This document shows, one piece after another, positions 33,270 to 55,636 of a DNA stretch of 64,000 nucleotides; the stretch's first letter is position 1, and each line of letters opens with the position of its first letter. The stretch covers positions 2,108,001-2,172,000 of the forward strand of contig JAQOTA010000050.1 of assembly GCA_029532415.1 (NCBI GenBank), read 5' to 3'. The stretch is from Marasmius tenuissimus (Eukaryota > Basidiomycota > Agaricomycetes > Agaricales > Marasmiaceae). The position numbers and the translations under genes were made by a program. The notes beneath the pieces were generated by a model. That model was not told the DNA's origin. It made no database searches and was given only the letters and a program-made list of their open reading frames with translations.

Positions 33270-34582
33270 ATGCTCATCACATTCCCTAGATTCATAGCCT
33301 TCCTCTCTTTCCTTTCCTGTGGTGCTATCGCCTACGGACGCGTACTCCCCCGAGTGACATCTGGTACACTGGTAGTTGACGACAGTACCGGAGTCGAACT
33401 TGCCTACCTGGACAGTGGTGCCCCATCATCCAACGCGGCAACTTACACGACTATCTTCACGGTCCATGGCATGATTTTTACCAACAGTGAGTTCGTGGCT
33501 TATCTCCTCGACGCCCGCTTCACTCAGACGTGTCTCAGAGATATTCGAGAAGATCCTCGAAATCGCACCTTCAAAAGGTGTCCGACTTGTGGCCGTTCAG
33601 CGCCGGCCCTTCCCTGGATCCACGCCCTTCACACCTGAGGAGCTCCAGATCACACTCACTGGCGGGTCGAGCGACGAAGAACGTGCAGCATACGCCGAGG
33701 CACGAGGACACGAACTAGCCAACTTCATTGACCGTTTCATCCAACAATTCCAACTTCCCGCCATCACGGCCAATGGACAAGGAGGGTCCGTTGTATGGGG
33801 CTGGTCCATTGGCGCTCTTCTTCCTGTATGGGCTATTGGTAATGCAAAGACGCTCCCCGCTGATGTCCAGACACGCCTGGGAGCTAACCTACGGTCTCTA
33901 ATTCTCTACGGTATGCTTCTTCCTGCCTTTGTCAAGCGTTCTGTTCGGATTCTGATGGAAATTGGTGGCAGAAATGGCGCCTCTGGTTCTAGGTCTCCCT
34001 ATGCCGCCACAGAACTGGAGTCCTCTTGTCGATGAGTCCGTCGTTGAGAACCGCCGCTTGCAATTGTTCGCGCAATGGTCTACTGGTTACTTCACGCACA
34101 ACGACACTTCCTTCTCCTTGGAGACACCTCACGATCCCGAATTGCTGGAATGGGTGTTGCACACACCCACGGTCGTCCCGACGGTTTACAACATTCCCGT
34201 CGCCGAGTTCAATAACATTGCTTCCTTCGGGGATGACGCGCAAACCGATCTTCCCATCCTTTTCTTTTTCGCAAAAGACCTCAAAAACGCGTTTGACAAC
34301 TCTTTCAAGGACCAGGAGACGGCGTCGATATTCCCAAAGATGAAGCGTGGTATCATGCAGGGCAGCTTAGGACCAGCGTTCGGAGCTGCTGGGGTCTGGG
34401 CCGTTCAGGATGAGGTGGCTAACAGCCCCATCGAAGTTAGCTACCAGATTGTTGATGGCGGAAATCACTACGTGAGTCCCGATCCTTTTCTCCATCTATC
34501 CAGTCCGGAGTCTGATTCTGTTCTGCAGTTCATCTGGGACAATCCCGAGAAAACCCTCGCTGCGTTGCTGAACATTGCTTAA
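33270..34582 (+). CDS. Secreted alpha/beta-hydrolase-fold protein, copy 1
   Basis: Four exons (33270-33486, 33539-33910, 33972-34471, 34529-34582) encode 380 residues. An N-terminal hydrophobic leader (FIAFLSFLSCGAIAYG) looks like a signal peptide. An ATG 33 nt upstream in frame is an alternative start. The HGMIF oxyanion-type segment follows the first strands. The nucleophile elbow is GWSIGA, and a late GGNHY carries the probable catalytic histidine. An acid residue could lie near the DLPILFFFAKD segment. Substrate unknown; ester or lactone hydrolysis is an inference from the fold. It shares all three intron positions with copies at 54.4-55.6 and 62.8-64 kb. Confidence 0.85.
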
Positions 34583-34710
34583 CTTTTTCGTGATATGGAA
34601 CTCCCTATACACGCCACGTATGGACGGTTTGTGCACTAAACATTTCGACGTATATGGTTACTGGCATCGACTTGGTACTTAGTCTTTAATTCCCTGTAAA
34701 GTGTGCAATC

Positions 34711-35022
34711 GTGAACTCATGTCTACCTACATGTTCGCACAAGTTTAGGGTTGACTTTGCAAGCCGGGGGTCGTGGTTAGACAACTTCACGCCTTATGGC
34801 CGCGCCGCGGATGCGATCTACAAAAGCGAGTTCATCGTATGTGCCTGTATAGCGGGGGCCATTGCTGCTTCCCACCTCCTACCTCACATGATACCAAAAA
34901 ATACTAGTAACTTGGCAGTAATTCTTCTGTATGGGTGCGCCATACTGATGTGGTTGCAGGGCTCTCTTAGATCCGGAGATAAAGTGAACGCGAATTACGC
35001 TGAATTGCGCCACTCATATTGA
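34711..35022 (+). CDS. Possible small two-helix membrane protein
   Basis: An open frame of 103 codons without introns. It contains two predicted hydrophobic spans (around FIVCACIAGAIAASHLL and LAVILLYGCAILMWLQG) separated by a short polar loop. No family is recognised. It lies between hydrolase 1 and the ICMT-like gene on the same strand. It could be a genuine small gene, a fragment of an ICMT-like gene, or chance. Confidence 0.3.
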   Translation: MNSCLPTCSHKFRVDFASRGSWLDNFTPYGRAADAIYKSEFIVCACIAGAIAASHLLPHMIPKNTSNLAVILLYGCAILMWLQGSLRSGDKVNANYAELRHSY

Positions 35023-35280
35023 TGAAAACTCAATATCACTCGAACTGGTTCACTTGAGTCCATGCGTTTCCGTATCCTCAAATGCGAGATGCGGATTTAA
35101 GCAGTCGTTACTACTGGGGGTAAGATGGAACGGATTATCAGAGATGGGAACGAACCACTATCAGAATTCTTCAGATATTTCTCTCGCTCTCCACCGTCAA
35201 AAGGATTCTGCCACTGATAAAAGGGAATCGGAATGATTTGACATGACGATCATCGTGCGATCAGCGAACGTCAATCTCCT

Positions 35281-35992
35281 ATGTCCTTCATCCTCATAAA
35301 AATTCCCTTGCTGCTCATCAGCGCGCATGGGATCTGGCATGCTTTAACGCCACCGCATACCTCAGCTCCCACGGAACGACTTCCACCCAGTTTCATAGGC
35401 CGTTTTGCGGTATCATTTGTTACCTTCATGAAGGTACGGTTCTCACCCCTGCTGACCTCCGGTCTTGTTATCACTAACGAAACAAATTCACTAGATTGTT
35501 CACCTCATGTTCTGCACTGTAGAAATACTCACCATCGTTGGTGGCAATCGCACCCGTGCTATCGATGTGTCACCCTCGTTCGTCCTTGGCCTTTCTCTCG
35601 TCATCTCTGGTTCCCAGATACGTTTCGCATGCTACCGTGCCTTGGGGAGACTGTTCACCTTTGAGATGGCCATACGAGATGGGCACAAACTCATTACGAC
35701 CGGACCCTACGCGCACGTTCGACACCCTGCGTACACTGGTCTTTTGATGACCATGTATGGGGAAGCTATCGTACAGGCCAGTTCCAGGACTTGGTTTGAC
35801 GTTTCGGGGTTGCGCGACGCGTGGGTTGGGAGAACATACCTAGCTATCCTCATCCTGCCGATGTTCCTTTTAACATACAGTTCTACCATGCGGGGCATCC
35901 GGGAGGATAAGATTCTGAAGGAGGAGTTTGGAAAGGAATGGGTCGATTGGGCAAGTAAGACTAGATATCGGATGATCCCATTGGTATATTGA
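35281..35992 (+). CDS. ICMT-like membrane methyltransferase
   Basis: A 216-residue protein from two exons (35281-35433, 35495-35992) with several hydrophobic spans. The C-terminal half carries the signature of the isoprenylcysteine carboxyl methyltransferase / phospholipid methyltransferase group: GHKLITTGPYAHVRHPAYTG, then an E-x-x-L-x-x-E-F-G-x-E-W segment near the end. True ICMT methylates prenylated CaaX proteins in the ER. Divergent short relatives are common beside terpenoid genes in basidiomycetes, and whether they act on small molecules is unclear. The position next to the UbiA/P450 cluster suggests, but does not prove, a biosynthetic role. Confidence 0.85.
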
Positions 35993-36102
35993 GTAAGGAA
36001 CCCCATTCTACGACATCTAAACGGGCAGCTGTAGTGCGAAATACTATTGGTGAACAATCATTTCAGCTAACTGTGGGTTTGCTCAGCACTCCGGTCGTAG
36101 TG

Positions 36103-38977
36103 TCAAGTCGAAATCAAGGACAATACCTTCTCGGCCAACGCGTATACAGTGGTTTGTATGTGGGTCCCTGGACCTATCGGAATTACGCTAGCGTCACAGA
36201 CCCTGAGGTTCGCCGTTCCATGAACTCTGAGTTGGCCGTCCACCACGCCTGGTCTCTAAGTCAGTTACTTGTTAGTGAAACCGTAGTGGATACTCACCGC
36301 CGAGCTCGCGTGGCGCCATTGAAACCGTTCCTATAAATGACCATATTATCAGACATCAAAATCCGGTAGAACAACAGTAATCGATACTTGCCCATGGGAT
36401 GGGAGGATGTCTGGTTCAACCGCCGGTGTATCAGTCATAGTCAGACTGTCAAGTCAGAACCAAGAACGACTCACGGAAGCAGTCGCCCGGATGTACCTAA
36501 TTCCAATGATGAGAAAGATACAACCGAAAAGTCGCCGAGAATAGCTCACTCAAGAAGTGCTGCATCGGTAGCGAGAGGATCTGGACTCGTCATCTGTTTG
36601 ATGAGATTCTTCATAGGGAGCGTCGAAGCCGCCCTGTATACCAGCCTGAGCGCCCCCAACAACAACTGGGAGTCTGCAGTAGTCGTCAGTCTACGGAGAG
36701 GGACATTCATGTAGGAGGGTCCGACCGAATTCGTTGTTCAAGAGGTTCGGGTTGATGACCGGGTGAGCAAGCGGGTCGGTGGAGTTGACATGCTGAAAAC
36801 AAACGAGGGCTTGAGTTAAGGCGCCGTCGTCGGTCACGTTTAGTCCTTACCACTGAGCCACGGCTTAAATGGTGCTGAAAATGAAGGATTGACTATCATT
36901 TCCTTAGCGACGTAGTTGTTCAGAGCTTACCATTCCTGCGACTATCAAAGAGATGTAACTCTTGTTGGCTTCGCCACCCAGAAATCCGGTGCTAAACTGG
37001 ATAAGTTCGATAGCAGGGACATTTCCTCGCAACCATTGGCGCTGTAGGTCAAAATGTACTCTTTGGAGGAGTGTTGGTTCGAGGGCAGAGACGCTACGAT
37101 CATAAGAGGCGAGGAGGAGATCGCTTTGCTTCTTGTCAAGATACAGCTTCGTTGGAAGGAAGGCGAGGCCTGTAGTCGTAGCTCCAAGCATACCGCCACC
37201 CGTACGATTACTGGGACTTTGGTCAGTCAGGAGGTCTCGTGAGGTGATCCACATACGAACTAGAAAGCGGTTTGCTCCTGCGCGAAGGTAGCGTTGTTCC
37301 TGAGTTCATCTGAAGGCAAGCTGAAGGCACGATGCTACGCTAAACCCAGATTCTGCTTACCAAATGTGAGATGTCCAGGTTCTAGCTCGAGTTGGGTGAC
37401 CACTGCCCAATGATCCTACTCGCAGACAATAAGCACGGCATTGAAGGCCAACTCTTAATACTACCAACCTGAAGATTCTCGCCTACACTCGGAATGTCGA
37501 TAAGGCTGGTTATATTTAAGCCCTTCAACAATTTCGCGTTACCAATCCCTATATCCAAGAAGTTAATGTCGAAACAAAGTAAAATCGCTGGGAGGTATGG
37601 CGTACCTGACAGCTCCAGTAACTGAGGAGACTGGAAGGTTCCAGCGGCGAGAATGACTTCTTTCGAGGCGTTTGCAACAAAGTACTCGTCCCCGACTACG
37701 AACTGAACCCCTGAAGCAATCAAGTTCTTCTCGTATTTATGAGTCACGAATAAGACTTTGGTGACCTATCGCAAGAGGCGAGTTATGGCGGGTACAACAT
37801 CATGGGCTACGACCGAACCTGTGCTCCTGTAAGGACGTGGAAATTGGGTTTTCTAGTGGAACGGCAGTAATATTCGTCTGCGTAAGATCGTCTTCCGGTA
37901 TCAAAGTTGACATTGGACCGCGAATTGAGGATTCCGTTGTTGTCGCCGTTCTCCTTGGGTGGACATCAGGCCACTTTCGCTTGCAAAAAGTAGGCCTCAT
38001 ACCGGGTTGGAATTAGTTTTTACTCCAAGATTGTTCAACGTTTTGACCCAAGGGAAGACAGGGTCAGCATAGAAGCTGTTCAGTCCAGACTGTTTGTTGT
38101 TTAGACATTGTAAGCGACCGGTTGGCGAGATGACCGCGTCAGGAAGCATGATCACTCACATGAATGGGGCCTCCATAACCAACGAAATTGGGATCGTTTC
38201 CCGCCTTCCTTTCGCTCTCGCTCAAGCCGGGGAATGGGTTCGATTGATTGGCTTTGATGGTATTTCCCTTCTTGAAGTAAGGAAGTAGCCCGTTCCAAGA
38301 CCAATCCTCCCCTTGGGCGAATTGCGTCCAAGAGTCGTATTCGGTTTTGGTACCGCGACTCCAAGCCATGAAGTTCATAGCACTCGAACCTCCAACTAGT
38401 TTACCCCTGGAAAACTGAACTGAACACCATTCAAGACCCTGATTAGCCGGATGCGCACCTCGCGTAACCTATGGATCGACCTCCCGCGTTTTTCTGCGGG
38501 ATCGTCGCGAAACTCCAATCATACTTTGGATTCCCTGCCGCACCTCCAACGTTCCCTGATGAGAGTGTTTTAGTCTCTTGCTTTGGCCATAAAATCAAGC
38601 AAGGCAAGTACCTGGAACGTCGAGCAATGGGTCGTCTGGATGGTGGAAACCTGCTTCGATTATTCCGACTCGCGTCTTACTGTTTTCTGCCAATCTTTCG
38701 TTCATCGGCTTCAGTATGGGGACGCTCCATAGACCAAGAGCATATTCACAAACCTTGAAGCGACTGTCAATCCGGCAGTTCCTCCGCCTGTCAAGAAATC
38801 AAGAGGATTGAGTGTTGGTCGAGTAGAAAGCGTCAAAGGAGGCTGACCGACGACGAGGTAATCAAAATCAAGTCCGGCGAACTCGGACGCGTCGTAGACA
38901 CGACCGGTTTGATCGCAAGACCGTCCTAAAGCCGTATCGAATAGGAGGGTGAGCGTAATTGTCAATGCAGCCAACAT
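36103..38977 (-). CDS. Secreted GMC oxidoreductase (aryl-alcohol-oxidase-like)
   Basis: An FAD-dependent GMC oxidoreductase of about 600 residues in roughly a dozen exons. It opens with a signal-peptide-like leader (MLAALTITLTLLFDTALG). The ADP-binding motif VVGGGTAGLTVASRL is joined across introns, with IIEAG at the end of the beta-alpha-beta fold. GMC signature 1 lies in KLVGGSSAMNFMAWSRGT, and signature 2 (GTFQSPQLLELSGIG) is also present. C-terminal SSHPMGTVSMAPRELGG and DASVIPIGPGTHIQTTVYALAEK segments hold the catalytic His region. An apparent TGA at 37966-37968 falls in a 49-bp intron (38002-37954). The intron 36391-36331 uses a GC donor. The family oxidises alcohols to aldehydes with O2 or quinones. 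It converges on the ICMT-like gene. Confidence 0.88.
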
Positions 38978-39316
38978 GATAGATGAAAATTGAAGTAGGT
39001 CGGGTCACTTGTGTGCACTTTCATGGCCCATTTTGATATAATATTCAGAATGGACGAAGAGAAGACGGTGCACAGTGCCACGGGCGGGATAAATAGCACA
39101 CAGCTGTGCCTGCGCCGTTCCACCAGATCAGAAGGGTTTCAGTCGTTATTACAACGAAACGAGTATGATCTACTCATACTTAGATCTGATGGGGAATAGA
39201 ATCGTGGCAGGTTTCTGAGTTTTTGGCAGTTTACCCCGCTGGTAGGCAGCACAAGAAGGTTGCAGATCCGAAAGCTGAGCATCGTATGATTTGTCGCCTT
39301 ATGATGTTGCCTCCTG

Positions 39317-39472
39317 TAGGGCTGCTCAATTCTCAGTTCGTCCCCAGTTCGTCAGCTCATCCCAGTTCGTCAGCTTATTTCGCGGGAATTTTTTGCGAAT
39401 TTCGCCCGGGACGAGCTGACGAACTGGGACGAGCTGACGAGCGGCCGACGAACTGAGAATTGAGCAGCCCTA
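39317..39472. mobile_element. 152-bp stowaway-like MITE with TA duplication
   Basis: Perfect 24-bp inverted ends starting GGGCTGCTCAATTCTCAG (39319-39342 and complement 39447-39470) are flanked by TA at 39317-39318 and 39471-39472. Inner inverted words (GACGAGCTGACGAACTGGGA and relatives) make almost the whole element fold back. TA duplication and size fit Tc1/mariner-type non-autonomous MITEs. It lies between the GMC gene and the first P450 and encodes nothing. Confidence 0.8.
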
Positions 39473-39740
39473 CAATGTGCGACCTTGTGGAGAGAATGAT
39501 CGGAACCTAAAAACAAGGAACGATATTTATGGTCACACCTTGGTGTGTCGTGGTCGGAGAAATGAGTCTTCAAGTTGCCATATGCTAGCCTATGCCAAAT
39601 TGCGATGATAGTCAGCGTCCAGTTGGGCGCGGGTACGTAATTGCAAGCCTTTGCGCAGCCTCCATGCCCAACTGTGAGTATGTTCACACGTAGAGATATA
39701 TTGTTCTCCGTTCTATATTTCCATAGTAGAATACATTCAT

Positions 39741-41852
39741 TCACGACCGGTTTACATGTGTAGCTCTTTCCTTGACGAACGCAGCTATTTCATTTGACCG
39801 AGGAATAAACGATACTTCGAACGCCTCAGCATAGCTTACGAGGCCACCTGAATACGAGGGGTCCAGTTCGCCTTTTGCTTCAATGTTTACCGTAGCCATG
39901 AGTCCCGAGACCAACAGAAACAAGTTGTTGGAGCCCAAGTAGCGCCCCGGGCACACGCTGGGTTCGTGTCAAGGTCAACGGTGAAGATTGTCGTGCAGCA
40001 GTCTTGCGACTTACCGTCGTCCGAAACCAAAAGCGTATACTTCGGGATCCAAAGCCGGATTCTCTCTTAGAAATCGTTCGGGGGCGAAGTCAGAGGTTGG
40101 TATGCCGGTGATATTATCCTTCGATATTTCCCTGAGTTTAAGTGAGAATCTCTGAAGGTAGACATGGAAGGACAGAGATATACCAGACGTTGGGTATGAC
40201 GATAGTTCCTTCAGGTATCCAAAAGCCTTTGAGAGGAATGAGCTGTGCTCAGAGACATCGAGAGGGGTTACCAAGATACCTTTATATTCCTCATCTCTCT
40301 TTGTTCTTCTCGCAATGCCGCATGGTAGTGCCGGACGCCAGCGAAGGACCTCCTTCACGGCTGCGTTCACGTAGGGCATACTCGGTTGATCTGACACAGT
40401 TGGAAGGCGCTCACGTCCTACAACGGCGTCAATCTCGTCCTGGATCTTCTTCTGTACAGCGGGGAAGCGGGCCATGGCGATGATGAAAGACAGGATGGAG
40501 GCGTAGGTCTACGGAGACAGAAGGTTTGTCCGAGAGACTAATGAAAGATCGGGAAGCCAGCTTACGCTTTCGCCGCCAGCTGTCATACATCAGCCATTAT
40601 GCCACGAAAAAAATCACTGCAAAGGAGCTTGCCTACCTCCGTACATTGACCCTGCAGCCCATAAGATGAGGTGATCCTGTTCTTCTTTTGAGATGGTGGA
40701 GGACCCGACGGCAGCGTCGAATTTGTCCAGGCAATCTCGCACGAAACATGGTCTCATCTCCCGCTTAGCGTATTGGAATGGCCGAGTGACCATGGAGAAC
40801 AGTAGCTTACGCCCGGCGTTGGCTGTTTTCGGTATGTTGTTAAACGGAACCCATGGAGGAATGCGCTTCACTGGTGTCATGAGTCGTGAGCACTCGAAGC
40901 CGAGCCGGAAAATGGTGAGGACCTACGTGCAGGTACCAAGTCAACGAGATGAGCGCCAGGTACTGTAGATTTGCTGATCATCTCCATAGTCTCCTCTGCT
41001 TCAGTGATGTACTAGCCAGTCGAGACATTCAGTCTACTAGAAAGTCGGAACTGGGGCAGACAACGACCTACGTCGTCATCGGGCGTGTTGAGAGATATCC
41101 CGTAAGTCACCGACATGATAATTCGACCAGCAGTCCTGGAGGGAGAAGCAAGCCAGTCAAGCCTTATATGCAAAGATACGGGCAAGATGGTAGTTCGACT
41201 CACAATCGAAGCTGGTCCATGAATTGCGATGGTTTCTCAAGGATACTATATAAGAATAGGACTGACGCGTCTTGCTGAATGTCATGATATTTCCTGACGG
41301 CCTCGATGCTCAGTGCAGCATGACAGAGTTTTCTTTGCTTTTTGAGAGCTGTATCATACGGGAGAAGTGGTAGACTCTGGGAGACATTAATGAGTGTGTA
41401 TTTGCAAAAAGAGTTAGGGAATCGCACGTTGTCCAGCCCTATTAATTCTCCTATCATGACAAAAGTTGGTCGGTCCGAGAATGACATCGCTCTATTGACC
41501 AGAAGATCTTCAACAGCTTCAATTGAGTTGAGTACGACTATTCCACGGCCCAAGGCCTCAACTGAGACAATATTGCCTGCGGAAAAGGACGCGCATCAAG
41601 TTAGCGATACCTAACAATGGTCAAAACAGTGCAGTTAGTGAGCCTACCATACCGACGTTTCCAGTCCGAGAACGTGTACCATGGGCTGAGCCGAGGAATA
41701 TCGAACAAGTTTCCAATCAAAGGCTTCTTGGGAGGACCCGGCGGTAAATTTTTTCGAGATCTGTTCCCGGAAAGTGTCTTGTAGGCGATGGGTAGTAAGC
41801 AAAGGAGAATGGCGGACAGAACTCCAGGTGAGAAACTCGGAATTATAGCCAT
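39741..41852 (-). CDS. Cytochrome P450 monooxygenase A
   Basis: A microsomal class II P450 in many exons. An N-terminal membrane anchor (VLSAILLCLLPIAYK) precedes the proline-rich NLPPGPPKKPLIGN hinge. The I-helix oxygen-binding motif reads AAGSMYG then AGGES across an intron. The K-helix E-x-x-R is in VKEVLRWRPALP. PERFLRENP is the meander, and the heme loop FGFGRR/VCPGR is split by an intron, with the Cys ligand in the next exon. The start chosen is the ATG immediately before the anchor; an in-frame ATG 54 nt upstream is possible. It resembles basidiomycete CYP5000-series enzymes that hydroxylate secondary metabolites. Substrate unknown. Same strand as the UbiA gene upstream. Confidence 0.9.
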
Positions 41853-42688: not shown

Positions 42689-43759
42689 CTACCATTCGAA
42701 TACCCTTGCTCGTAGGTTGTACGGGAGCAGATGAGCGGCTAACAGCCATATCTTTTTCCCACGATGATCAACTCAGTCGTTTGCTCTCGGTATTGAGAAG
42801 GTCAAAGAACTCACGTTGTAAAGTAGGTAATTTCGCTTGTCCGAGACCGGATCTCTGAAGAAGAAATATCGCGTGCCGACCAACGCTCCCATTGCAAAGA
42901 AGAGTGCGCCGCTGGTGGGACCGAGGGAACAAAGATTTGCGAGGCCGGCGGACCAAGCCATGAGGACAAAAAGGATGTAATATCTTGACCCTTCAGGAGC
43001 GACGATGGGGAGTGTACGGCGTCCCGAGAGCTTGTCTCCTGCTACATCTGCAAAGTCCTGGTCAGATGGTTCAGCTCCTCCGTCCGGAACGCCAAAGGCA
43101 AGTAAATACCTGTGCAGATATCGTTGTAAATATCAAGATCCCGCTGGACACAATTGCCATTAGCGAGATACCATCTAAAGGCCGTCCTCCATCTCAAAGC
43201 CACCAAATCAGTCATCTGCCTCGAAATTGGATCGGGGCACTTACTCATACACACACTCGCCCCAACCTCGAACGTGGTATACCCGCCGACATTACAGAAG
43301 TTCTTCAACATCAAATGACCGCTACACTCGAAGTCGTCGTGCACAATCTCGACCAGAGTGAGGGCTGCGCTTGCATAAAACACCCATGGCGATCGGTATA
43401 TCGAGAATCCCAGACATACAGGCACTAACAACCATCGCAAAGATCGCGCCTGCTCCGCTGTTACCCTGCCCGATGGTAGCGGACGCCATGGTTTGTTGAC
43501 GAGGTCTTCGTGGCCGCTATATGTCTGGTTTGAGACGTTGGCTTGGAGGAGGTGAAGCCATAGCCAAATCACGGTAAAAATGAAGGATGACCAGTCGAAG
43601 GAGTCTGCGACTGCGAGAGAGAACATTAACTTGTGAAAGTGAGTGGTTGCGAGATCGGCGACGCGATAGAACTCTCACCACCGGAAAGAAGATAGTCTTG
43701 TAATCAGATTTCGTGAAGAGATAGAGTGTCTCTATATGATGATGGAGCGGATTAACCAT
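42689..43759 (-). CDS. UbiA-superfamily membrane prenyltransferase or terpene cyclase
   Basis: Five exons (43759-43679, 43629-43253, 43192-43110, 43047-42815, 42751-42689) encode 278 residues with many hydrophobic helices. The N-terminal LYLFTKSDYKTIFFPV and the NKPWRPLPSGR block (about 72-82) are hallmarks of fungal UbiA proteins. The first acidic site is N61...E68-D69 rather than textbook NDxxDxxxD. The second is a clear DxxxDxxxD (D177, D181, D185, in NDICTDVAGDK), which binds Mg-diphosphate. Family members attach prenyl chains to aromatic or quinone acceptors, or, like fumagillin Fma-TC, cyclise farnesyl diphosphate. Which applies is not decidable from sequence. An upstream ATG near 43,850 would require a different first exon. 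It is the probable scaffold-forming enzyme of the cluster. Confidence 0.88.
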
Positions 43760-44418
43760 CTTGTTGAGTGGAAGGGAGACAGGACCGTCAAGAACTCATA
43801 CCAGTGATAAAGTAGTCCCCTTAGAGTCCCCGAATTCGGCGAACAGTCTGGCATAGTTTTAACGTTTATGATTTTTTCGGGGCACCTGATCACGAAAAGA
43901 TGCATTGAATAAAGCAGAACATTAGAAAAATGGATGACACCACAAGATGTGCTCGGGGAAATGGTCCGCCAGGAATGAGTCAGAGTGAATCCAAACTTTC
44001 TAGAAGTTGCCGCTTTAGGTCCCGCCCAGGATATGACCGAAAGACCTGCGAAACGAAACTGCATTGTCCATCAGTTAGCACCAGCACTAGGAAACCGGTC
44101 GCAACGGAGACCGACTCCCTCTTACACTAGAACAATGACATTGTAGCTGACTCGTATATTAGTGAGTTCTGACGCGTGTATCTTGCTTGCCTACGCGCTG
44201 ACGGTCATAATCTGGATTCTGCGATGTAGTCGACTCTCGGCCCAGATTAGAGTGTGTCATCGGCCGAATGTCAATTACCACAGTATCGTCCTTGGCTCGC
44301 TCGCGTGCATCAAAAGTTACTGGAACACCGTGGCTGCGGCCAATTTGGTGATCGCACGACTTCGCGGGTGTTCGATGATCAGGAAAATCTCGTCCAATTA
44401 GTTCCATCAAGCAGCATC

Positions 44419-44770
44419 TTATCTTGACAGAAAATGCCAATACACGTTGCTCGACGTGGTCAGAAGTCTCACCATTGATACCGTCTCCCTGGCATAAGCG
44501 TTCCAGACGTCTGCGAATCCATGCGGCATGAAGTAGTGGTCCCTGAATGGCAGCGTTCGTGAACCGTCCATTGAGCAGTCTTTCCAGTGAGACATCGACC
44601 AGACATGATCATCTGTGGTTTTTCGAATGGGTTTCAGCTCGCGGAGACAATAAAATGCCAGATGGGGTTCGTTACGCACCTATATCCACGTAGTTCATCC
44701 ACATCCATCCGAAACTTGAGCTCAAGCCACCTTCAATGACACCCTGTCCTGAATCGTCCTGATGTACACC
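44419..44770 (-). CDS. Uncertain coding segment or gene remnant
   Basis: An 86-codon minus-strand frame (44679-44419) is rich in Trp, His, Tyr and Met, for example PFRDHYFMPHGFADVWNAYA. Just upstream, about 44770-44690 reads VIEGGLSSSFGWMWMNYVDI in another frame ending at a possible donor. The composition is more protein-like than neighbouring noise, but I recognise no family and could not find a start, end or consistent splicing. It may be a decayed or unusual gene between the UbiA gene and P450 B. Confidence 0.25.
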
Positions 44771-45464: not shown

Positions 45465-47985
45465 TCAGTTCTCCAGCGGTTTGATGATCACAGGCAGCTC
45501 GTTCCTCCCCAGGTCGGCCTCCCGCTTACGATCGAAGACCCAAGGCTGGACACTAGATGCGATCTTCAATTGAAGCTCTAGTCCTTTCGGAGACTCAAAT
45601 GAAAACTGAGTCAAAAGCTGGGCGACGATAACCTGAAGGAATAATACCATCAGCTAAGACAATAAGAAACGTAATCGAGGGTTCGCACAGACCTTGTAGT
45701 TAAAGATGGCTATACGAAAGTAGAGTATGTTAGTATACCGCTGCGTCGAGTAAAAAGAAAAGACGCACCGAGCTGCGAGCCCACGCAACTACGCGGCCCA
45801 TCGCTGAACACCAGCATTCCGCCCCAACCACCGTAGCCCATATCGGGAGGATTCTTCGAGAGCCACCGCTCAGGCATAAACGTGTCGCCATCAGAGTCCA
45901 GGCGCTGAGCAGCAATAATAGGTATGAGAACGGTCTGCGAATCCAAGTGTCAGGACTGGTCCGTAATCAGAGGCTAGATATGGGGACACACCTGCCCCGG
46001 CTTGACAACGATTTCGTTAATGAGTTTTCCTCCCTTCTTGACAGGATCCCGGAGTGGGATGACATCCTCTTTTGTGGCCGTTCGCTCCATGTAAGGTAAG
46101 CCAGGGTACATCCTCAGACTGGAGACAGAAATAAGGGTTGCGACAGAGAATAAAGGGTGGAATGCGTACGTCTCTTTCAAAACTGCGTCCAAGTAGGGTG
46201 CCTTATCTGGCTGCAAATCCGCCCACGTCGCATTGGGTGACAATTCCTTCCTGAGCCGTTCCTGCTTTTCAGGGTGTTGGGCCAGCTCCCAAAGAGAAAA
46301 TCCCACAGTCGTTGTCGTACTTTCGAACCCTGCAATGCTATTTCCATCCCAAGTGAGTTGGTGAAACACGTAAACCTGAGAAACATGGCACCAATACGAA
46401 CATGAATGTGGATATCTTGTGGATAGAGCCTCAATGAGGGTGGGTGGGCTGATAGACTCAAATACGCACGTGCTCATATAATTCTTGTTTCGAGATCCTT
46501 TCTTCCTCCGCGGCGAGCACTATTGCGTGTCCAGTAAGCGCGACGAACGGATATCTCAGTGAAGTACACGCACAAAGTCGACTCAGGAGGTCGCTCTGGG
46601 ACCACCTTTTGACTTCCTCGAGAAGTCCTTTATCACGATTGACGAGTTCTTCCGCTACTCCGGCCTGTTCGTGACGTTAACGAACACATAGACCAGCGTT
46701 AAGAGAGGGCAGACTGACATGAACGGTCCTTCTGGCCAGACCTTGACCCTGAATTGCACCGATTGGGAGGTAGTTCAGGAAATGGAAACGGCGCAACATC
46801 ATCAAGGTCTGTAAATGAAGCTTAGAAAAGTAATGAGGGAGCGAGATGTGATCGAGCGTACAAGGAATCCGATATACTTCGCGGCAGGCGATACGCCTTT
46901 CTTGCGAGCGTTGAGAATCCCTTGAGCCTCTTCTGAGTTACCGGCCTTAAAGTCATGCAGGAAGGCCTGATCTTAAACAATAAGAGAATAGCACGATGCT
47001 GACAGGACCGAGGGGAACGTACGACCCGTCCGACGATGTTTAAACTGGGATTTAGGGAGTGAATATGCATAGAAAGACAGGAAAAGGAACACTGATACGT
47101 TGCCTTTCCTGTCCAATCAACGATGTTAACCTCACGATTGTTATCCTTGTTGGTGTCGACATCACGAACGAGGTCCTCGGTCACCTACATAGGTATTAGC
47201 CTTGATTGAATGAGTAGAAGATATGACCTCTCGGGATACCTTCCAAGCGGCGTCGATTATGTCGGGGGACATTGTCTTGATATTGTCTGCACTGTAAAAA
47301 CAGTTAGAATTTCCCAGGTTTGTTGAGTACATAGAGTATGTACGTACGTTAATGCTGGACGACTGAGTCTTCGCATTCGTTTATGCTCATCTTCGCCTTC
47401 GATCCAGCCGAGACCTTCACCGAGAAGGCGTGCCACTCGGGGGCGTACGACTTCGCTGTGATCTGAACGGGTGTTTGAGAGAAAGTAGGCGCGAGTGAAC
47501 GTAACGTACGGTAATCGAAGACTTTCTTCTGCAGAAGATAATTGACGCCAATTGTATCAGAAAGTACAAGCTGGTAGATACAGAACGGTCAGTCACTGAG
47601 GTGGAACCCCCAAGGGAAAATGCCCACAATGTCGGGAGCCTAGGTAGGCATCGCTGTGAGTGAGTTATAAGGAGAGCAGAAATCAAACGACGTACACCAA
47701 ACGCGGCCTTGATCCGGAACGTTTTCCCGAATATCCGAATCCAGTCTCTGAAAGCGCGGCCTGGTTGTTGTACGTATACTGTCTTCTCGTGTCCCCAGAT
47801 GAAAGATGCATCCGGCTGCGATTCTTTAGTTGAAACAGCATCAGACAGAATGATCCACGAACCGGAAGAGGAAGATATTGAATAGGGGAGCGGACGGAGG
47901 GTGATACGGCGACAACGAAAAGGACCAAGAGTATTACGGACCCCGCGACGATTGGATGGGCAGCAATAAGGCGAGGGGCATCCAT
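45465..47985 (-). CDS. Cytochrome P450 monooxygenase B
   Basis: A multi-exon P450 with an N-terminal anchor (VAGSVILLVLFVVAVSP). The I helix carries HIAGFESTTTTVGF. The K-helix E-x-x-R is in LKETLRMYP, joined across an intron. A PERWL meander precedes the heme-binding FSDGPRSCVGSQLG, with the cysteine in CVG. The C terminus is complete (ELPVIIKPLEN). The AGFES-T motif and FSDGPRSCVG loop resemble Agaricomycete families such as CYP5144-like and CYP512-like enzymes; the exact family is not assigned. Its start codon faces that of the AKR gene 532 bp away, suggesting coordinated expression. Substrate unknown, probably a cluster intermediate. Confidence 0.9.
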
Positions 47986-48517
47986 AGTGGGATTGGAGAA
48001 CTAGAGATGGGGACGGTTTGCCGTTTGTCATGAGGACTTCTTATTAGATGTTAGCTGTACATCAGCGCCAAATGGACTCCCAACTTGGCTATGTATTGGG
48101 GACATCGCGAGATTCCACATGAGTCGAACATGGAAGTTCTGGAAGAAGTCCCGGCGCCCAGCGCTCTCGGAGACCTCCGGTGCCCACGGTTCCGGGACCG
48201 GAACTCCATCACTAATACCGCGTGCATCAGGTATAGGGTGTATTCCAATCTCTTGCCAATCATGGTTCCTGTTGTCTTCTCGAAATTAATCGCTTTCATG
48301 CCGCTCGCTACGTACATGTTGCAGCGTGTTGCGAGTCCATTTGCCTTCTAAAGCAGCCATATATGTCCATATCATCCTATATCATCCCGTTATCGAACAA
48401 AGTTTGGTTCTGATGCCTTCCAACAAACCTTTTAAACCCCTCCACTGGTTCAAAGACAGGCACCGTTCCAGCGACAGCAAAGAAAACCTCAAGGACACCT
48501 CACAACACCCTACAGAA
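47986..48517. promoter_or_regulatory. Divergent promoter, P450 B / aldo-keto reductase
   Basis: The 532 bp between two opposite start codons contain no gene. The shared position would allow co-regulation of the two tailoring genes. No known operator was identified. Confidence 0.4.
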
Positions 48518-49939
48518 ATGTCCGCGAAAGCACACTATGTTCGACTCGGCAGGACTGGGCTTCGAGTTTCTGTCCCCGTCGTAAGTAGCTGATGGTGGAC
48601 TGATTTTGAGTTTAATCTAACAGTACATATCTCCAGCTTGGGACTATGGGAATCGGGAATCCTGAGTGGATTGTAAGCCCAATCACTTGCTCTTACCGCC
48701 CAATTGTCGCTCAAGTCTTTTCCCAGCCGGGTACTTTGAACGAGGAACAAGTGAGTTCCGCTACAACCTACCATATCAATGTTGGCTTAACAGATTCAAA
48801 GGCATTCCCGGTGCTTCAAGCTGCTTGGGACTCAGGGGTGAACACTTGGGATACCGCAAATATGTACAGGTACGCCCATCCTGTCTTCAGTCCTTAGCGT
48901 TTCTTGTCAGGTTCTCAACTCCTTCTCGCGTAGCAATGGTCTCTCCGAAACGATCATAGGAAAGTTCATAACGCAGGTACATGTCACTGTCACCGTCCCT
49001 TTTCATTGTGTCTAACTTCTTGTGGTCTGCAGAGGAACGTCAATCGTTCAAGACTCGTTCTCATTACCAAGGTCCGATTTCTCGTGGACGAAGAAGAACC
49101 GAAGACTATCACCTCCTACTTCCGTCCCGAGCTTAAAGACACCAGGGACTACGTCAACCAAGGTGGCCTTTCTCGCTCCGCTCTTTTCAATCAGGTCGAT
49201 GCCTGCCTCGCACGTCTACAGACCTCTTACCTCGACGTGCTATTGATTCACATGGCGGACACCGAGACTCCCTTTGAGGAGACAATGTGCGCCCTTAATG
49301 ACCTCGTTCGGTCTGGGAAGGTCAGGTACATTGGTGCCTCCAACGTTCGAGCATGGCAATTCATCGAGATGAACAACGTCGCAGCCCTCAACGGTTGGAC
49401 GCAATTCAGCTGCGTTCAGATGGAGCACTCTCTTCTCTATCGCACAGAGGTACGCCACGACACCTTTTCCTGCCACCTATTCCCTTCAACGTAAAATTCT
49501 TCAACTAGGAACTCGAATTGTTTGCTTACTGCAACCACAAAGGCATTGGCACGCTCGCTTATTCTCCCTTGATGGACGGCCACCTCGCGCGTAAACCTGG
49601 TGAATCCACCCCACGATCCAAGTCCGTCGAAGGGACGTTCTTCGAGAAGAAACGTCGACCTTCTGATCAGGAGATCATCAAAAGGGTGATCGAAACTGCT
49701 GAAAAGAATGATTGGAAGATGGGGCAGGTTGCTCTGGTCTGGAGCCTAACAAAGATCAGCGCTCCGGTAGTGGGTGCGAATTCGGTGAGTATTCCCCAGC
49801 CCGTCCACGTAGAGAAGGAAGCTAATAATGAATGTAGCCGGAGAGGATTCAAGAGGCCATTGTTGCTGGGAAAACGCTGACGGAGGAAGAGATCAAGTAT
49901 TTGGAGCAGCCATACGAACCTCAACCTCCTCGGTTCTGA
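48518..49939 (+). CDS. Aldo-keto reductase
   Basis: An NADPH-dependent AKR of the fungal aryl-alcohol-dehydrogenase/versiconal-reductase type, in several exons. It begins YVRLGRTGLRVS. The catalytic tetrad is visible: Asp and Tyr in NTWDTANMYS, Lys in LVLITKVR, His in VLLIHMAD. The YIGASNVRAWQF motif and GTLAYSPLMDGHLAR follow, with a cofactor-binding end around APVVGANSPERIQEA. It terminates QPPRF. A short exon (CCGGGT...GAACAA, 8 codons) lies between two introns near 48.73 kb. The chosen ATG gives the usual short N terminus; an in-frame ATG 105 nt upstream exists. It probably reduces a carbonyl made by the cluster's oxidases. Confidence 0.9.
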
Positions 49940-50111
49940 TTTTCTGTCCACTCTCGCACTCCATCAAAGACATAGTCTTAGCATTTTCGTCCTTCTCGTA
50001 AAACGTTACAACACTGTCTATCAATCTCCATCAAGTCTGAGATATTGTGATGCAAGCTCGCGTTCTCGCCGCACCTTGTACGAAATGGAACACAAGGAGC
50101 ATGCTGTACTT

Positions 50112-51324
50112 CTATGCCTTCAAACGAGCCTTGATGAACCAGAAGTCATGCAGCGTCTCAACAGCTGGATCCTCCCTCTCTTTCAACCACTTCCTTCGTA
50201 ATTCCGGCGTCATCCCAGCCTTGTCCATATCTTCCCCTATTGGACTAGCAACAATCCTCGTTATTGTGGACAGAAGGGCGCGGGCAAAAGGCGTAGGCCC
50301 TGGTCAATAATGTCAACACTTCGTAATGAGCACACTGGAGAATTCTTACCACAGCGTGACGGATTGGTTGTAAGAGTCAACTCCACTTTTTGAGAGTCCA
50401 CTTCAAGATACAAGTTAGTATCGGCGATGTAACGAACTACGTTCTCTCCGATGATGGGATCCAGGCCTTTCGACCTTAGCATGGGGAGATAGATCTCATC
50501 GAATGTTTTCATTGCTGGCGTAGTGAAACCGACGTGCGGACCAGCATCTTCAATGAGCAGAATTCCGCCTGGTCTGAGAAGGGAGGTCCCAATGAAGCTA
50601 AGAATGTGAGGTATGTGTGCTGTGGGTATCTGGAAAACGAATAGGCGGTGGGCATCCGGACGCTCAAGCGAAAAGCGTGGGACACGTACGTGATAGAAAA
50701 CCAACCTAACATGAACGATGTCGAATTTCTCTCGCTCGACTGGTCCGGGGTTAAGGATGTCAATCAACCAGAAGCTCAAGTTGCTCGGTAGGTCTCTGTA
50801 ATGTCTGATGGTCAAGGTCGTGAGAGAGAGAATGTGGGTTTTCTCGATCGGACCTGGTGGACATCGGTTTCATATCTGCAGCCACTACTGACGCCTCTGG
50901 GTACTCCAGGGCAGCTTGTATAGCCCTAAAAATGAAGTCAGTCATCGGCCGTGCCTGCGTATCACCGACTTTGTAGTATTCACCATGCTCCACTTCCAGC
51001 TCTAAAAAAAGTATGTCAGCGTATTCGCATCTTGGATTCATCTTCGAGGGACTCACCCCAGATCAAGAATCCTTGTAGGCGATAGGTCCCTAAGGTCCGC
51101 CTCAAATAACGACAGCGCACCATCGAAGTGAGCCCTCATGCCCAGATGCAACTCGTCTAGTCTGAGAAACGCGTCGGTGAATATACATTTGCTGAGAGCG
51201 AGGGATGTGATACGAACCTTGAGAATTCAGATCCGTCTACATCCTTGTCCTGAAGTAATGTCGATCATCTTGAATTCATCTCGCAGTGTAAGCCTACCCT
51301 GAGCCAATAATGACTGTCAGCCAT
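50112..51324 (-). CDS. SAM-dependent methyltransferase
   Basis: A class I Rossmann methyltransferase in multiple exons. Motif I is RILDLGAGSGAW, completed across two introns, followed by AIQAALEYPEASVVAADMKP (motif II with acidic end). ILNPGPVEREKFDIVHVRLV and LLRPGGILLIED are motifs IV-V. It ends DFWFIKARLKA. The start MADSHYWLR is inferred because it joins in frame to DKDVDGSEFSRLDELHLGM. Members of this group methylate small-molecule O, N or C atoms. It converges with the AKR gene, 172 bp between stops. Role in tailoring the cluster product is inferred. Confidence 0.82.
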
Positions 51325-52271
51325 CTTCACGAAGCTCGGTACTGAAGGCAAGAAACAAAGCTCCCGGTAACGTCGTCTCGCGAACCGCGAGCAGAAAAAC
51401 CTTGTCATGGCACCCACAGCGCAGTCAACATAACCACCACGAGTAACTGTGGGAAGCACATGTCGCCGGCCGGCGGAGGGAAAAAACGGAGAATCCCTCG
51501 AATAAGTTCAAACGCCTAACGGGTATTCGAATCAGCACACGGTCTCATACGGTTGATCCAGTGAGAAAGCATGGTCGCCGTACTTACGATCCAGGGGTCC
51601 AGAGCTGGCACTTTTGGAGACATGTCGATAATCAAACAAAACACCAAATTCTACCGTTCGATTCTTCATGCCTGGGATCAATGGCAGCTCGAGATAGAGG
51701 AGATAGCACGAGAAACGAGCCACAAGCCACGAGATCTAGGTGGTGGTTCGGCAGAAGCATCTCATGGGATGGTTAGCATCGTCCAGCGGATTTGGCGGGG
51801 TTCTTAGCTTTAGGATATCCATCCGGAAATCTGATTTGCATACATAGTGCTTGTGGTCAATTCATACGAAGATCGAGAATCTGCTAGGCACTCACAGATG
51901 TGAATGTTGACCGAGAGGGGATTTAAGAAAGCTGTGATAAATTGAGGAACAAAGATCGCGATGTTCGAGTAGAAGGTCGGTTCGAACAGGACCAGAGTCT
52001 ATCAGAGTCTATCGCATGATGTGGACTGGGTACTAGGATGCATCGGGCAAGCCGGACTCGGAAATTCGAACCAAATACACCTCATTCCCACAGTTTCCCG
52101 CGAGCGACGCTATACTCCCGACTCCCATGCCATAGCCTACCATGTACCCGGATTTTTGCAAAACCGAACCTCACCATGTGGCTGAAGAATTGGTAGCATT
52201 CTCGGCAGCCGCTGCGGTCAGCAGCAACGCTTCAAGCAGATCTGGAACTTATCCCTCGATAGCCTTTTGGA
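51325..52271. other. Intergenic region, divergent methyltransferase / P450 C
   Basis: No gene supported; small frames on both strands lack motifs. It includes the promoters of both flanking genes. Confidence 0.5.
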
Positions 52272-54244
52272 ATGTCGCTTCTCACCAAGTTTTTGCGCCT
52301 CGAGATTTTTCTCCCATCTCTTCTTGCGACTCTCCTCTTCTTACATCAATATCTCAGCCGAATCTCTTTGCCTCCAAGTGTAGGCAACCTTCATGGTGTC
52401 AAGGAATACCGGTGGTCCGTGTACGCCCGTTTCGCCAAACAGCTTGGTTGTAGTGCTCCTTCATCGTATTTTCTGAACGATATTATTGAGCTATCATCGT
52501 TGAACAGGCCCAGTGATATCAGGCCCGGCTATCGTCGGTAGCTCTGTGGTTGTGCTCAACTCTCGGAAGTCCTTGCACGACTTATTGGAACTTCGGGGAG
52601 CCGTGTTTTCTTCTCGTCCAAAATGGCCAATGGTAGAGCTGCTAGGGAGAGACAAGTGGGCTTAGACATCAATTGCGTCTTGATAAAGACTGACTGAATT
52701 AACGAGCAGTAACGTCGGCTTCACGTACTATGGGGAACGGTTGAAGAAGCTTCGTGGTGTATTGCACAAGTCACTCAATCCTCACGCGTTGTCGGAACAA
52801 TGGTCGCATCTTTTGGACGAGCAGTCCCTCGAACTGTGCAACGCACTCCTGGGGTCCCCGCTCGACCCATATAACGTCGTTGCGCGGAAAATGCAAGAAC
52901 TCGTCACTCTTTTCGCCTATGGCCTTCGCCCTTCTCCCTCGTATCTTCAGCTGACGAAGAAGGTGTCCGAAGAAACGGGAGAAGCTTTTCAACCGGGGCG
53001 ATGGCTGGTCAACTTTATCCCTTTACGTACGAAATCTCACTCCTATCTTGCTCAACACGGTGTCACTAATCGCGAGTAGTTAAATACGTACCACACTGGT
53101 TACCTGGCGCTGGTTTTCAGCGATGGGCAAAGCAAGCAAAAGGGCTGTTTTTGGAAATGGTACGTGAGCCGTTCATTGAAGTACGCAAGAACATGGTAAG
53201 ATTCTCATACGTATCGCAAAATGTGTGCTGAGGTCGGTCTTCTAGGTCACGGGCAATCTATCGCAATCTTTCGTCCTCGAAAGCCTGAAAGATAGGACAA
53301 ATGAACCTGAAATAGTGATGTATGCTGCGGGAAGTCTTTTCAGTGGTAAGCGAGTGCTCTCCTTGCTCGGACATTCATTCTGAATACCGTCGTCGAACCT
53401 TCCAATAGCGGGTACAGAAACAGTATGTAGTTTTTGCGAACTTCTACTCGTGTCTGATCCATCGACTTGAGCTCATCACTGTCCTAATGAACCTCCTCGC
53501 TGTCTTGACGCGCCACCAAGAAGTCCAACAAAAAGCATTCTCAGAGTTGAACCGCCTCGGCCACTTCCCTACCTATTCTGATCTTCCAGACCTGCCCTAC
53601 ATCTCTTGCATCCTGCAGGAGATACATCGACTCTACCCACCCGTTGCACTCATCCCTCACAGTAACATCAGAGAGGAGGTTTACGATGATCTGGAGGAGA
53701 TCAAGGCCCCATTAAGGATCCCGAAAGGGAGTTGGGTCATGGCAAATGTTTGGTAGGCTCCTATCCACTTATGCTCCCGCGACCTCATTGAGTCTTTGTA
53801 AACAGGGCGGTGGTACACAATGAAGATGAATATCCCGAACCTGAACTCTTCAAGCCAGAGAGATTTGAATCCCCTTCTGCCTTGGATCCAAGACTTGTGA
53901 CTTACGGATTTGGTAGACGGTGCGTGTCTCATTACAGAAAAGCGCCTCGCTCGACGATTCACACTAGGCTTATAGGAGATGTCCTGGGGCGCATTTCGCG
54001 GACCGATATCTATCTATCACGATCGCAAGGCTTTTGACCCTCTTCGAGATCCACCCAATCAGCGAAGGAGAGTACCCCATATTGGAGTTCACCGCTGGAC
54101 TCGTTGCGTAAGTTTTGATGTTCGTGGAGGGATCGCTATTGAAACACTAGTCCTTGCAGCGTCCCGAAGCCATTCAAATGTAAATTAGTCCCGAGACCTG
54201 GAGCGAAAGAAGTCCTGGAATGGGCGCGGTCGAATGTATCATAA
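52272..54244 (+). CDS. Cytochrome P450 monooxygenase C
   Basis: A complete multi-exon P450. Hydrophobic anchor LEIFLPSLLATLLFLHQYL; the usual PPGP hinge is shortened to LPPS. I-helix AAGSLFS then AGTET across introns, K-helix E-x-x-R in LQEIHRLYPPV, meander FKPERFESP, heme loop YGFGRR/RCPGAHFA split by an intron. Beyond the loop, frame analysis gives a normal C terminus ending LEWARSNVS. It resembles the O-methylsterigmatocystin-oxidoreductase-like P450 group typical of Agaricomycete terpenoid clusters. Similar in organisation to P450 A (heme loop split at the same Arg-Arg position), so the two may be related by old duplication. Confidence 0.9.
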
Positions 54245-54421
54245 CAGCCACATACAACTTTAATGAATATTTCTACTTCACTCCGTGTGTTGCTCCTCAA
54301 TATGGACTATCCAGCGGAATAAGCATTATCTATACAACGGAGTCATTGCAACAGGTCAATTATCGCCCGCGCTGAGCGTTTTGTTCAAGTTACGAGTACA
54401 ACAAACTCCCTGCATAGGATA

Positions 54422-55636
54422 TTATGCAAGAGCAACAGCCACGTCCAAGACCTTCTCAGGTTCATCCCAGACCGTCTGCGGCAGCGAAATTTCACACGGA
54501 ATGAGATATCACATTATGGATAGATGATGATGGTACGCACGAAGTGATTACCTCCAGGGAGAATCTTGAACTCGACGGTAGCGCCAGCCAATTCTTTGTC
54601 GTCCTGAATGGCCCACATTCCTGCAATCCCAAACGCGGGTGCTTTGCTCCCCGTAAGATACGCGCGTTTTAGGTTGGGGAAGGTACTGGCAATTTCCTTG
54701 TCTGTAAGAGCCGCTATGAGGGCCTTCTTATGCTCATTTTGGAAGAAGAAGAGGAAGGGCAGGTCTGTCGAAGCGTCGTCTCCGTAGGTAACCAACTTGT
54801 CGAGTTTGTCAACGGGAATGTTGTAGAGCGTCGGGACAAGAGCAGGAGTGTGTAGGATCCATTCGAGAAGTTCAGGATCGTGTGGGGTCTCCAAAGTGAA
54901 GTTGCCATGATCGAAATAACCAGTGCACCACTGACCAAACAGCTGAAGGCGTTTGTTCTGAGGAACGGCCTCATCCACCAGAGGACTATAGTTCTGAGAG
55001 GGCATTGGGAGACCAAAACACATTGGCGCCGACTCTGGTGGCATCGCGGACGGGTGAGCTTTACGCCAGCATCTTGAATGTCTCAAAACATACCGTAGAT
55101 AATCAACGAGCGAATGTGTGCACCTAAGCGCTTCTTCACATCATCGGGGAGAGTCTTCGAGTGTGCGATTGCGAGGACGGGAAATATGCCTCCGACGGAC
55201 CACCCTAGCAAGATTGACCCCCCTTTGGTGCTAGAAACGGCAGGAAGATCGTTCTTCGCAATGAATTTATCGACGAATAAAGCAATTTCGTGTCCCCGGG
55301 CCTCAGAATATGCTGCGCGCCCTTCTTCTGTTCCACCGGTGAGAATAGTATTGAGATCATCGGTGCTCAATGAGGTCGATCCAGGGAAAGGACGACGTTG
55401 AATTGCAACTAGACGGACCCCCTTCTTGGAAGCAACGCTGAGCATCTTTTCAAAGACCGCTTCGACACAATCTCAGTTTCCTCACCCCACTGGAAAGAAA
55501 CTTGCAAGTTACCGTTCGTGAAAATCATACCATGGACAGCGAAAACTGTTGTGTAGCTCGCGGATCCTGATGGCGCCCCGCTGTCGAGGTAAGCGAGCTC
55601 TACGCCTGGGGTGACCTTGAGGGTGGGTGAAGGCAT
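54422..55636 (-). CDS. Alpha/beta-hydrolase-fold protein, copy 2 (no signal peptide)
   Basis: A paralogue of the hydrolases at 33.3 and 62.8 kb. Introns fall at the same three places: after the HGMIFTN segment, within the YE codon before the second half, and after GGNHF. Starts MPSPTLKVTPGVELAYL, directly at the first strand, so the secretion leader of the other copies is absent and a cytosolic location is likely. Nucleophile elbow GWSVGG; late GGNHF histidine; ends EPEKVLDVAVALA. It is more diverged than copies 1 and 3 are from each other. Convergent with P450 C, 177 bp between stops. Confidence 0.85.

What the first reader, a model, noticed from the sequence alone, without database searches (positions are those of the whole stretch)
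33270..55636. Candidate terpenoid or meroterpenoid biosynthetic gene cluster built around a UbiA-type enzyme
Ten adjacent genes fit one pathway: two alpha/beta hydrolases, ICMT-like methyltransferase, secreted GMC oxidoreductase, three P450s, UbiA-superfamily enzyme, AKR and SAM methyltransferase. They are bounded by a nucleoside transporter on one side and DUF6534/SWD1 on the other. No polyketide synthase, NRPS or soluble class I terpene synthase is visible, so the UbiA protein is the only skeleton-forming candidate. The gene families are seen in the sequence; pathway membership is inferred from clustering.
Basis: partly seen in the sequence, partly recalled or inferred. Interest (0 to 1): 0.85.

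Follow-up and report, generated by a model that had tools for sequence, protein, structure and literature searches.

The report
Mushroom membrane terpene cyclase gene cluster
A mushroom genome holds a cluster of enzyme genes built around an unusual membrane enzyme that probably makes a terpene, and its pairing with one oxidising enzyme recurs in other mushrooms, so it may mark a widespread but unstudied natural-product pathway.

Summary
The ten genes are there. The window lies in Marasmius tenuissimus; UbiA and the P450 beside it are PM082_004890 and PM082_004889.
UbiA carries QDFADVAGD (QDXXDXXXD), the motif of fungal UbiA-type terpene synthases (Tps1A, Tps2A, Fma-TC, EriG), and lacks NDxxDxxxD and YxxxK of aromatic prenyltransferases, so terpenoid is favoured over meroterpenoid. 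It differs from Tps1A at the essential Tyr155: here His124, as in 60 of 120 listed homologues.
Same-species, same-length contigs link UbiA to this P450 in 16 of 34 species found in both hit lists (about 1.6 expected by a rough estimate), three with consecutive locus tags. The ICMT-like gene is linked to UbiA in 2 of 8 shared species, and to the P450 in Armillaria gallica.
The other genes were not tested for synteny. A third hydrolase copy, another P450 and a DUF6534 gene lie past the right border.
Likely work: FPP cyclisation, P450 oxidation, carboxyl methylation. Substrate, product and the outer genes' membership are inferred. New variant of a known kind.

The parts
42689..43759 (-). UbiA-superfamily enzyme, 284 aa, 5 exons (= PM082_004890): motif I N61..S65..D69, H124-D125-D126, motif II Q183-D184..D187...D191
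   Evidence: Pfam UbiA 101 bits
39741..41852 (-). P450a, 509 aa, 11 exons (= PM082_004889), hydrophobic N-terminus and FGFGRRVCPG haem motif; conserved partner of UbiA
35281..35992 (+). ICMT-like membrane methyltransferase, 216 aa, 2 exons; nearest named relatives in Armillaria
33237..34582 (+). alpha/beta hydrolase 1
36183..38977 (-). GMC oxidoreductase with hydrophobic N-terminus; best solved relative patulin synthase; C-terminus needs a GC-AG intron; 3' end approximate
45465..48031 (-). P450b, only distantly similar to P450a (haem region FSDGPRSCVGS); N-terminus approximate, integrity not proven
48518..49939 (+). aldo-keto reductase, open to the C-terminus
50261..51623 (-). SAM-dependent methyltransferase, no other match in the own genome; ab initio model
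52374..54235 (+). P450c, FGFGRRRCPG, open frame over reference residues 43-501; first exon not modelled
54422..55606 (-). alpha/beta hydrolase 2 (57-58% identical to hydrolase 1 over its two larger matches); N-terminus not modelled
62799..64000 (+). alpha/beta hydrolase 3, 78-82% identical to hydrolase 1 over its two large exons; runs 100 bases past the window; cluster membership uncertain

Best explanation
A terpenoid biosynthetic cluster. The UbiA protein is most likely a membrane-embedded, Mg-dependent terpene cyclase acting on a linear prenyl diphosphate, most likely farnesyl diphosphate from primary metabolism (no prenyl-diphosphate synthase match is in the window). P450a, its recurrent genomic partner, oxidises the hydrocarbon. 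In Marasmius and Physalacriaceae relatives the neighbouring ICMT-like enzyme then probably methylates a P450-made carboxylic acid, while the extra P450s, GMC oxidase, AKR and soluble methyltransferase decorate further. Shown here: gene content, UbiA motifs, the UbiA-P450a linkage, and the narrower ICMT linkage. Inferred: substrate, product, order of steps, and membership of the outer genes.
For: Motif II QDXXDXXXD with all three Asp, and the Asp of motif I exactly 115 residues before it, the spacing Tps1A has (D100, D215) (PMC9835599 read). 48% identity to a Taiwanofungus camphoratus (Antrodia cinnamomea) homologue that has the same spacing and the Tyr; it may be Tps1A or Tps2A but could not be assigned. 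Motif II is present in 117 of 120 listed homologues. UbiA and P450a on one contig in 16 of 34 shared species, 15 of 33 without the window's own, with consecutive tags in M. tenuissimus 004889/90, Tetrapyrgos nigripes 011278/79 and Agrocybe pediades 000280/81. ICMT on the UbiA contig in A. luteobubalina (191940) and M. mucida (34415), and on the P450 contig in A. gallica (606019). The known tps1 minimal set is UbiA synthase + P450 (to acid) + methyltransferase (to methyl ester).
Against: The Tyr whose alanine mutant abolished the Tps1A product (Y155) is His124 here. Motif I has Ser65 where the published pattern has Gly/Ala, although Ser is the commonest residue there (99 of 120). 18 of 34 shared species showed no same-contig pair, including 7 of 8 shared Suillus species. 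In the own genome no other UbiA locus lies near an ICMT, and the 20 fetched UbiA loci, about 10 kb each, show none of the cluster's ICMT, soluble methyltransferase, AKR or hydrolase; three show a GMC and one a P450. ICMT is unlinked in 6 of 8 species shared with the UbiA list, and A. luteobubalina has a slightly better ICMT hit (P0122) on another contig. No expression or product data.
Confidence: 0.7

Rival explanations
1. Meroterpenoid cluster: UbiA prenylates an aromatic acceptor (as ClaS or the pleurotin 4-hydroxybenzoate farnesyltransferase do), and the P450s and GMC tailor the prenylated ring.
For: Basidiomycete UbiA prenyltransferases with aromatic acceptors exist (passages of PMC11574748, and PMC12790560); GMC oxidases of aryl-alcohol type are among the GMC's solved relatives; the catalytic Tyr of Tps1A is missing.
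Against: The first two Asp of NDxxDxxxD are Q62 and S65; YxxxK is absent (H124, E128); motif II is the cyclase type; no PKS or aromatic-acid gene among the ten scanned proteins; the left-hand genes were only read by eye.
Confidence: 0.1
2. Diterpene (EriG-like) cluster using GGPP.
For: EriG shares the same two motifs (PMC9835599) and tailoring P450s are present.
Against: The Hericium coralloides diterpene cluster carries its own GGPP synthase (PMC11508549 passages); here no PF00348 match lies in the window. Co-expressed GGPP synthase gave Tps1A and Tps2A no additional product.
Confidence: 0.13
3. Smaller true cluster: UbiA-P450a (plus ICMT here) is the pathway, and the hydrolases, P450b, AKR, methyltransferase and P450c are neighbours of other function.
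For: Only UbiA-P450a and partly ICMT have cross-species support; the hydrolases belong to a local copy family that also sits beside DUF6534 past the WD40 gene.
Against: The genes lie close together and are of classes typical for tailoring; the outer ones were not tested in other species.
Confidence: 0.4

Closest known systems
tps1/tps2 clusters of Antrodia cinnamomea (Tps1A/Tps2A bisabolene synthases, Tps1H P450, Tps1D methyltransferase; PMC9835599)
   Same: UbiA-type protein with QDXXDXXXD, same motif spacing, P450s and a methyltransferase nearby; 48% identity to a homologue of the same species
   Different: His124 instead of the essential Tyr155; an ICMT-like membrane methyltransferase as well as a soluble one; orthology of P450a to Tps1H untested
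Fma-TC of Aspergillus fumigatus (beta-trans-bergamotene synthase)
   Same: UbiA-type sesquiterpene cyclase with the shared motifs (as stated in PMC9835599)
   Different: ascomycete; sequence not held here, so identity not measured
EriG / cyathane-type clusters of Hericium
   Same: UbiA-type cyclase with P450s
   Different: GGPP synthase and UDP-glycosyltransferase in the H. coralloides cluster (PMC11508549 passages); no GGPP synthase match here, glycosyltransferases not searched
Digeranylgeranylglyceryl phosphate synthase 6m31 (archaeal UbiA)
   Same: best solved relative by profile search, E 3.2e-16; Tyr aligned at the position of His124
   Different: prenyl transfer to a lipid acceptor, not a cyclase (recalled)
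Patulin synthase (GMC, 8bxl)
   Same: best solved relative of the cluster's GMC
   Different: polyketide pathway of ascomycetes (recalled)

Membership tests
UbiA superfamily | Pfam PF01040 above the curated cut-off | tested here: met
   101.4 against 34.2 bits
fungal UbiA-type terpene synthases | motif II QDXXDXXXD | tested here: met
   QDFADVAGD at residues 183-191
fungal UbiA-type terpene synthases | motif I NXXX(G/A)XXXD | tested here: inconclusive
   N61 and D69 present, Ser65 in place of Gly/Ala; Ser in 99 of 120 homologues
fungal UbiA-type terpene synthases | Tyr155 of Tps1A (called highly conserved; alanine mutant abolished the product) | tested here: not met
   His124; among 120 aligned homologues 60 His, 53 Tyr, 4 Asn, 1 Thr, 2 gaps. 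Hence described as a divergent relative, not filed as a bisabolene synthase
fungal UbiA-type terpene synthases | cyclisation of FPP | not testable with these tools
   needs an enzyme assay
aromatic UbiA prenyltransferases | NDxxDxxxD | tested here: not met
   Q62 and S65 replace the first two Asp
aromatic UbiA prenyltransferases | YxxxK | tested here: not met
   H124 and E128; motif definition from PMC12790560 passages
erinacine-type diterpene cluster | GGPP synthase in the cluster | tested here: not met
   PF00348 matches lie elsewhere in the genome
tps1-type cluster | UbiA synthase + P450 + methyltransferase together | tested here: met
   gene classes present; functions not shown
tps1-type cluster | P450 orthologous to Tps1H | not tested
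   Tps1H sequence not held; no Taiwanofungus protein among the 120 best P450a hits
ICMT family | PF04140 above the curated cut-off | tested here: met
   46.3 against 24 bits; closest solved protein 4a2n, named isoprenylcysteine carboxyl methyltransferase, E 7.1e-8

The most novel reading that the evidence does not exclude
The HDD clade is a re-tooled kind of UbiA terpene cyclase: the Tyr that handles the carbocation in the UbiA fold has become His, usually with Asp instead of Glu two residues on, and the enzyme travels with a dedicated P450 across Agaricales, Boletales and Hymenochaetales. In Marasmius and Physalacriaceae a membrane ICMT-like enzyme has been recruited as a terpenoid carboxyl methyltransferase, giving a juvenoid-like methyl ester made entirely by membrane enzymes.
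Probability: 0.3. Interest if true: 0.72.

Novelty: new variant of a known kind. Interest (0 to 1): 0.5.

Why it matters
In Tps1A the Tyr is essential and was called highly conserved. Half of the 120 closest homologues of this protein have His there, and in many mushrooms they share a contig with a particular P450. If the protein is a cyclase, two genes name a widespread mushroom terpenoid pathway, and comparing HDD and YDE enzymes gives a ready test of what the Tyr does. It would also be a first case, to my knowledge, of an ICMT-like enzyme in fungal terpenoid tailoring; (UbiA with isoprenylcysteine) found no paper and none of the 12 titles listed concerns it, which is weak evidence.

Tried and rejected
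Ab initio gene finding with too cheap or too dear introns fused or broke genes; replaced by bounded models, hand splicing and protein-to-genome alignment. My first UbiA model (278 aa) missed 6 residues at an acceptor; P0001 (284 aa) fits the homologues better. Within-genome recurrence of a UbiA-ICMT pair: not seen. Recurrence of the tailoring set at other UbiA loci: not seen in the 20 loci fetched of 30 others. Assigning P0069 to Tps1A or Tps2A: not possible, residue numbers are offset by 25 or 12. A 149-aa ORF at 44159-44608 gave no Pfam match (139 aa of it given) and is probably not a gene. Structure prediction to place His124 could not be run. The chance estimate assumes a 40 Mb genome per species and uniform placement; it is an order of magnitude only. 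The lists are the best 120 of 240 UbiA hits and of 3386 P450 hits, so absence of a pair in a species is weak evidence. The group comparison chose its His group by HDD, so positions 124 and 126 are circular there; one search gives the counts without that choice. The 8 species shared between the UbiA and ICMT lists were matched by hand.
Full report
Where it is. The window is bases 2108001-2172000 of contig C7 of a 71 Mb genome. The UbiA protein's best hit is a Marasmius tenuissimus protein on a contig of the same length as C7 (6,882,755), 98% identical to my first model. P450a is 100% identical to PM082_004889 of that species. M. tenuissimus causes thread blight of cacao in Ghana (abstract passage of PMC8581569).

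The observation. Ten gene families are found by Pfam in hand-built or ab initio models, the two hydrolases slightly below the cut-off. My P450a model, spliced by hand before the search, matches the public protein exactly. P450c, AKR and GMC show no sign of decay in the parts read; P450b and the soluble methyltransferase rest on ab initio models, and P450b's integrity is unproven. The ICMT-like gene has no near-identical hit, although UbiA and P450a do in theirs, so it seems unannotated or modelled differently in the public gene set.

What the UbiA is. It carries motif II QDFADVAGD. PMC9835599 (parts 1-4 of 5 read) reports QDXXDXXXD and NXXX(G/A)XXXD as the motifs conserved in the UbiA-type terpene synthases Tps1A, Tps2A, Fma-TC and EriG, against NDXXDXXXD and DXXXD in prenyltransferases, and shows that mutants D100A, D215A, D218A, D222A and Y155A of Tps1A lose the product. 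In the Marasmius protein the motif I Asp (69) and the first motif II Asp (184) are 115 residues apart, as D100 and D215 are. The residue 55 after the motif I Asp, Tyr155 in Tps1A and Tyr130 in the T. camphoratus homologue P0069 (counted by hand), is His124. Among 120 homologues the position is His in 60, Tyr in 53, Asn in 4, Thr in 1 and a gap in 2. Two residues on, 53 of 60 His proteins have Asp and 43 of 53 Tyr proteins have Glu. On a FastTree phylogeny of 127 sequences (117 of the 120 hits and 10 own paralogues) the states need 15 changes against a mean of 46 and a minimum of 38 in 200 shuffles, so the state runs in clades, with some reversals and parallel gains. The window's protein groups with Armillaria, Desarmillaria, Mucidula, Tetrapyrgos and Collybiopsis proteins (support 0.86). 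The family profile aligns archaeal DGGGP synthase and chlorophyll synthase with Tyr at that position.

Own genome. 59 UbiA-domain exon matches fall in about 31 loci (grouped by hand). A search with the window protein reaches 13 of them, its own included. Of 20 fetched loci, 10 are of the cyclase type by tblastn and 10 gave no match. The ten have Tyr (9) or Asn (1) at the position, none His. The other 10 loci were not fetched.

Conserved neighbours. The protein searches list the species and the length of the longest contig for each hit, and I take equal length in one species as the same contig. Of 34 species present in both the UbiA and the P450a list, 16 (15 besides the window's own) have a UbiA and a P450a hit on one contig; a rough chance expectation is 1.6. 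They include Marasmius, Armillaria, Desarmillaria, Tetrapyrgos, Volvariella, Pluteus, Agrocybe and Mycena; Paxillus (on a 14 kb contig), Pisolithus and Suillus ampliporus; Rickenella; Earliella; and Jaapia, that is Agaricales, Boletales, Hymenochaetales, Polyporales and Jaapiales (orders recalled). In three cases the linked UbiA is Tyr type (Earliella, Jaapia, Marasmius fiardii). 18 of 34 show no pair. For ICMT, 2 of 8 species shared with the UbiA list are linked: A. luteobubalina (which has a slightly better ICMT hit on another contig) and M. mucida (a 169-residue hit whose cluster spans two contigs). Unlinked are Lentinula aciculospora, Wolfiporia cocos, Collybiopsis confluens, Chiua virens, Gloeopeniophorella convolvens and Paramarasmius palmivorus. 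A. gallica links ICMT with P450a. No search was left for the other genes.

Borders. Hydrolase 1 has relatives at 54.4-55.6 kb and at 62.8-64.1 kb, a fourth on contig C3 at 39-59% per exon, and weaker ones elsewhere. Past the WD40 gene come hydrolase 3, a P450 without stops in its model and a DUF6534 protein, the last 74% identical over 101 aa to the window's copy. The hydrolase-DUF6534 neighbourhood therefore looks locally duplicated, and the hydrolases may or may not belong to the pathway.

How it may work. By analogy with tps1, where Tps1A, the P450 Tps1H and the methyltransferase Tps1D suffice for a bisabolene methyl ester, I propose cyclisation of FPP by UbiA, oxidation by P450a and methylation by the ICMT-like enzyme. 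FPP rather than GGPP is favoured because no prenyl-diphosphate synthase match lies in the window, unlike the Hericium coralloides diterpene cluster (PMC11508549 passages). The GMC's best solved relative is patulin synthase, which would fit a late oxidation outside the cell, an inference only.

Literature. Searches for UbiA with terpene cyclase and basidiomycete, UbiA-type with cyathane or EriG, UbiA with isoprenylcysteine (no paper), UbiA-type with intramembrane, UbiA with Armillaria, Marasmius tenuissimus with genome, ICMT with terpene clusters, UbiA and Agaricomycetes with conserved cluster and UbiA with Suillus listed no paper whose title or abstract start describes the HDD clade or the UbiA-P450a pair. 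The library holds open-licence papers only. Six papers were opened: PMC9835599 in four of five parts, and passages of PMC11574748, PMC11745945, PMC12790560, PMC11508549 and PMC8581569; the rest were seen as listings.

Verdict. A real cluster, probably terpenoid, with a conserved two-gene core and a divergent UbiA enzyme: a new variant of a known kind. Interest 0.5.

Noticed in passing
window 62799-64000 and L029 (window frame 63001-72000): Third hydrolase copy (78-82% identical to hydrolase 1 over the large exons), a P450 without stops in its model and a DUF6534 protein beyond the WD40 gene: a local duplication of the hydrolase/DUF6534 neighbourhood.
   Followed up: partly
G000 whole genome: About 31 UbiA-domain loci, several in close pairs (C10 3714k/3719k, C5 3719k/3722k, C19 2637k/2650k, C10 1556k/1583k).
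   Followed up: partly
G000 C28 312-347k and C55 437-475k: Two arrays of ICMT-like genes with similar spacing and several equal scores, possibly a recent segmental duplication or two haplotypes.
   Followed up: no
L011 and L027 (UbiA paralogues): Each carries one in-frame stop in my model, in L027 just before the first Asp of motif II; they may be decaying copies or model errors.
   Followed up: no
window 35281-35992: The ICMT-like gene has no near-identical hit among public proteins although UbiA and P450a do, so it seems missing from, or modelled differently in, the public annotation.
   Followed up: no
window about 36410-36330, - strand: The GMC gene appears to use a 61-base GC-AG intron within its HPMGT motif.
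   Followed up: partly
window 44159-44608, - strand: A 149-aa open frame between UbiA and P450b without Pfam match (139 aa given); probably not coding.
   Followed up: partly
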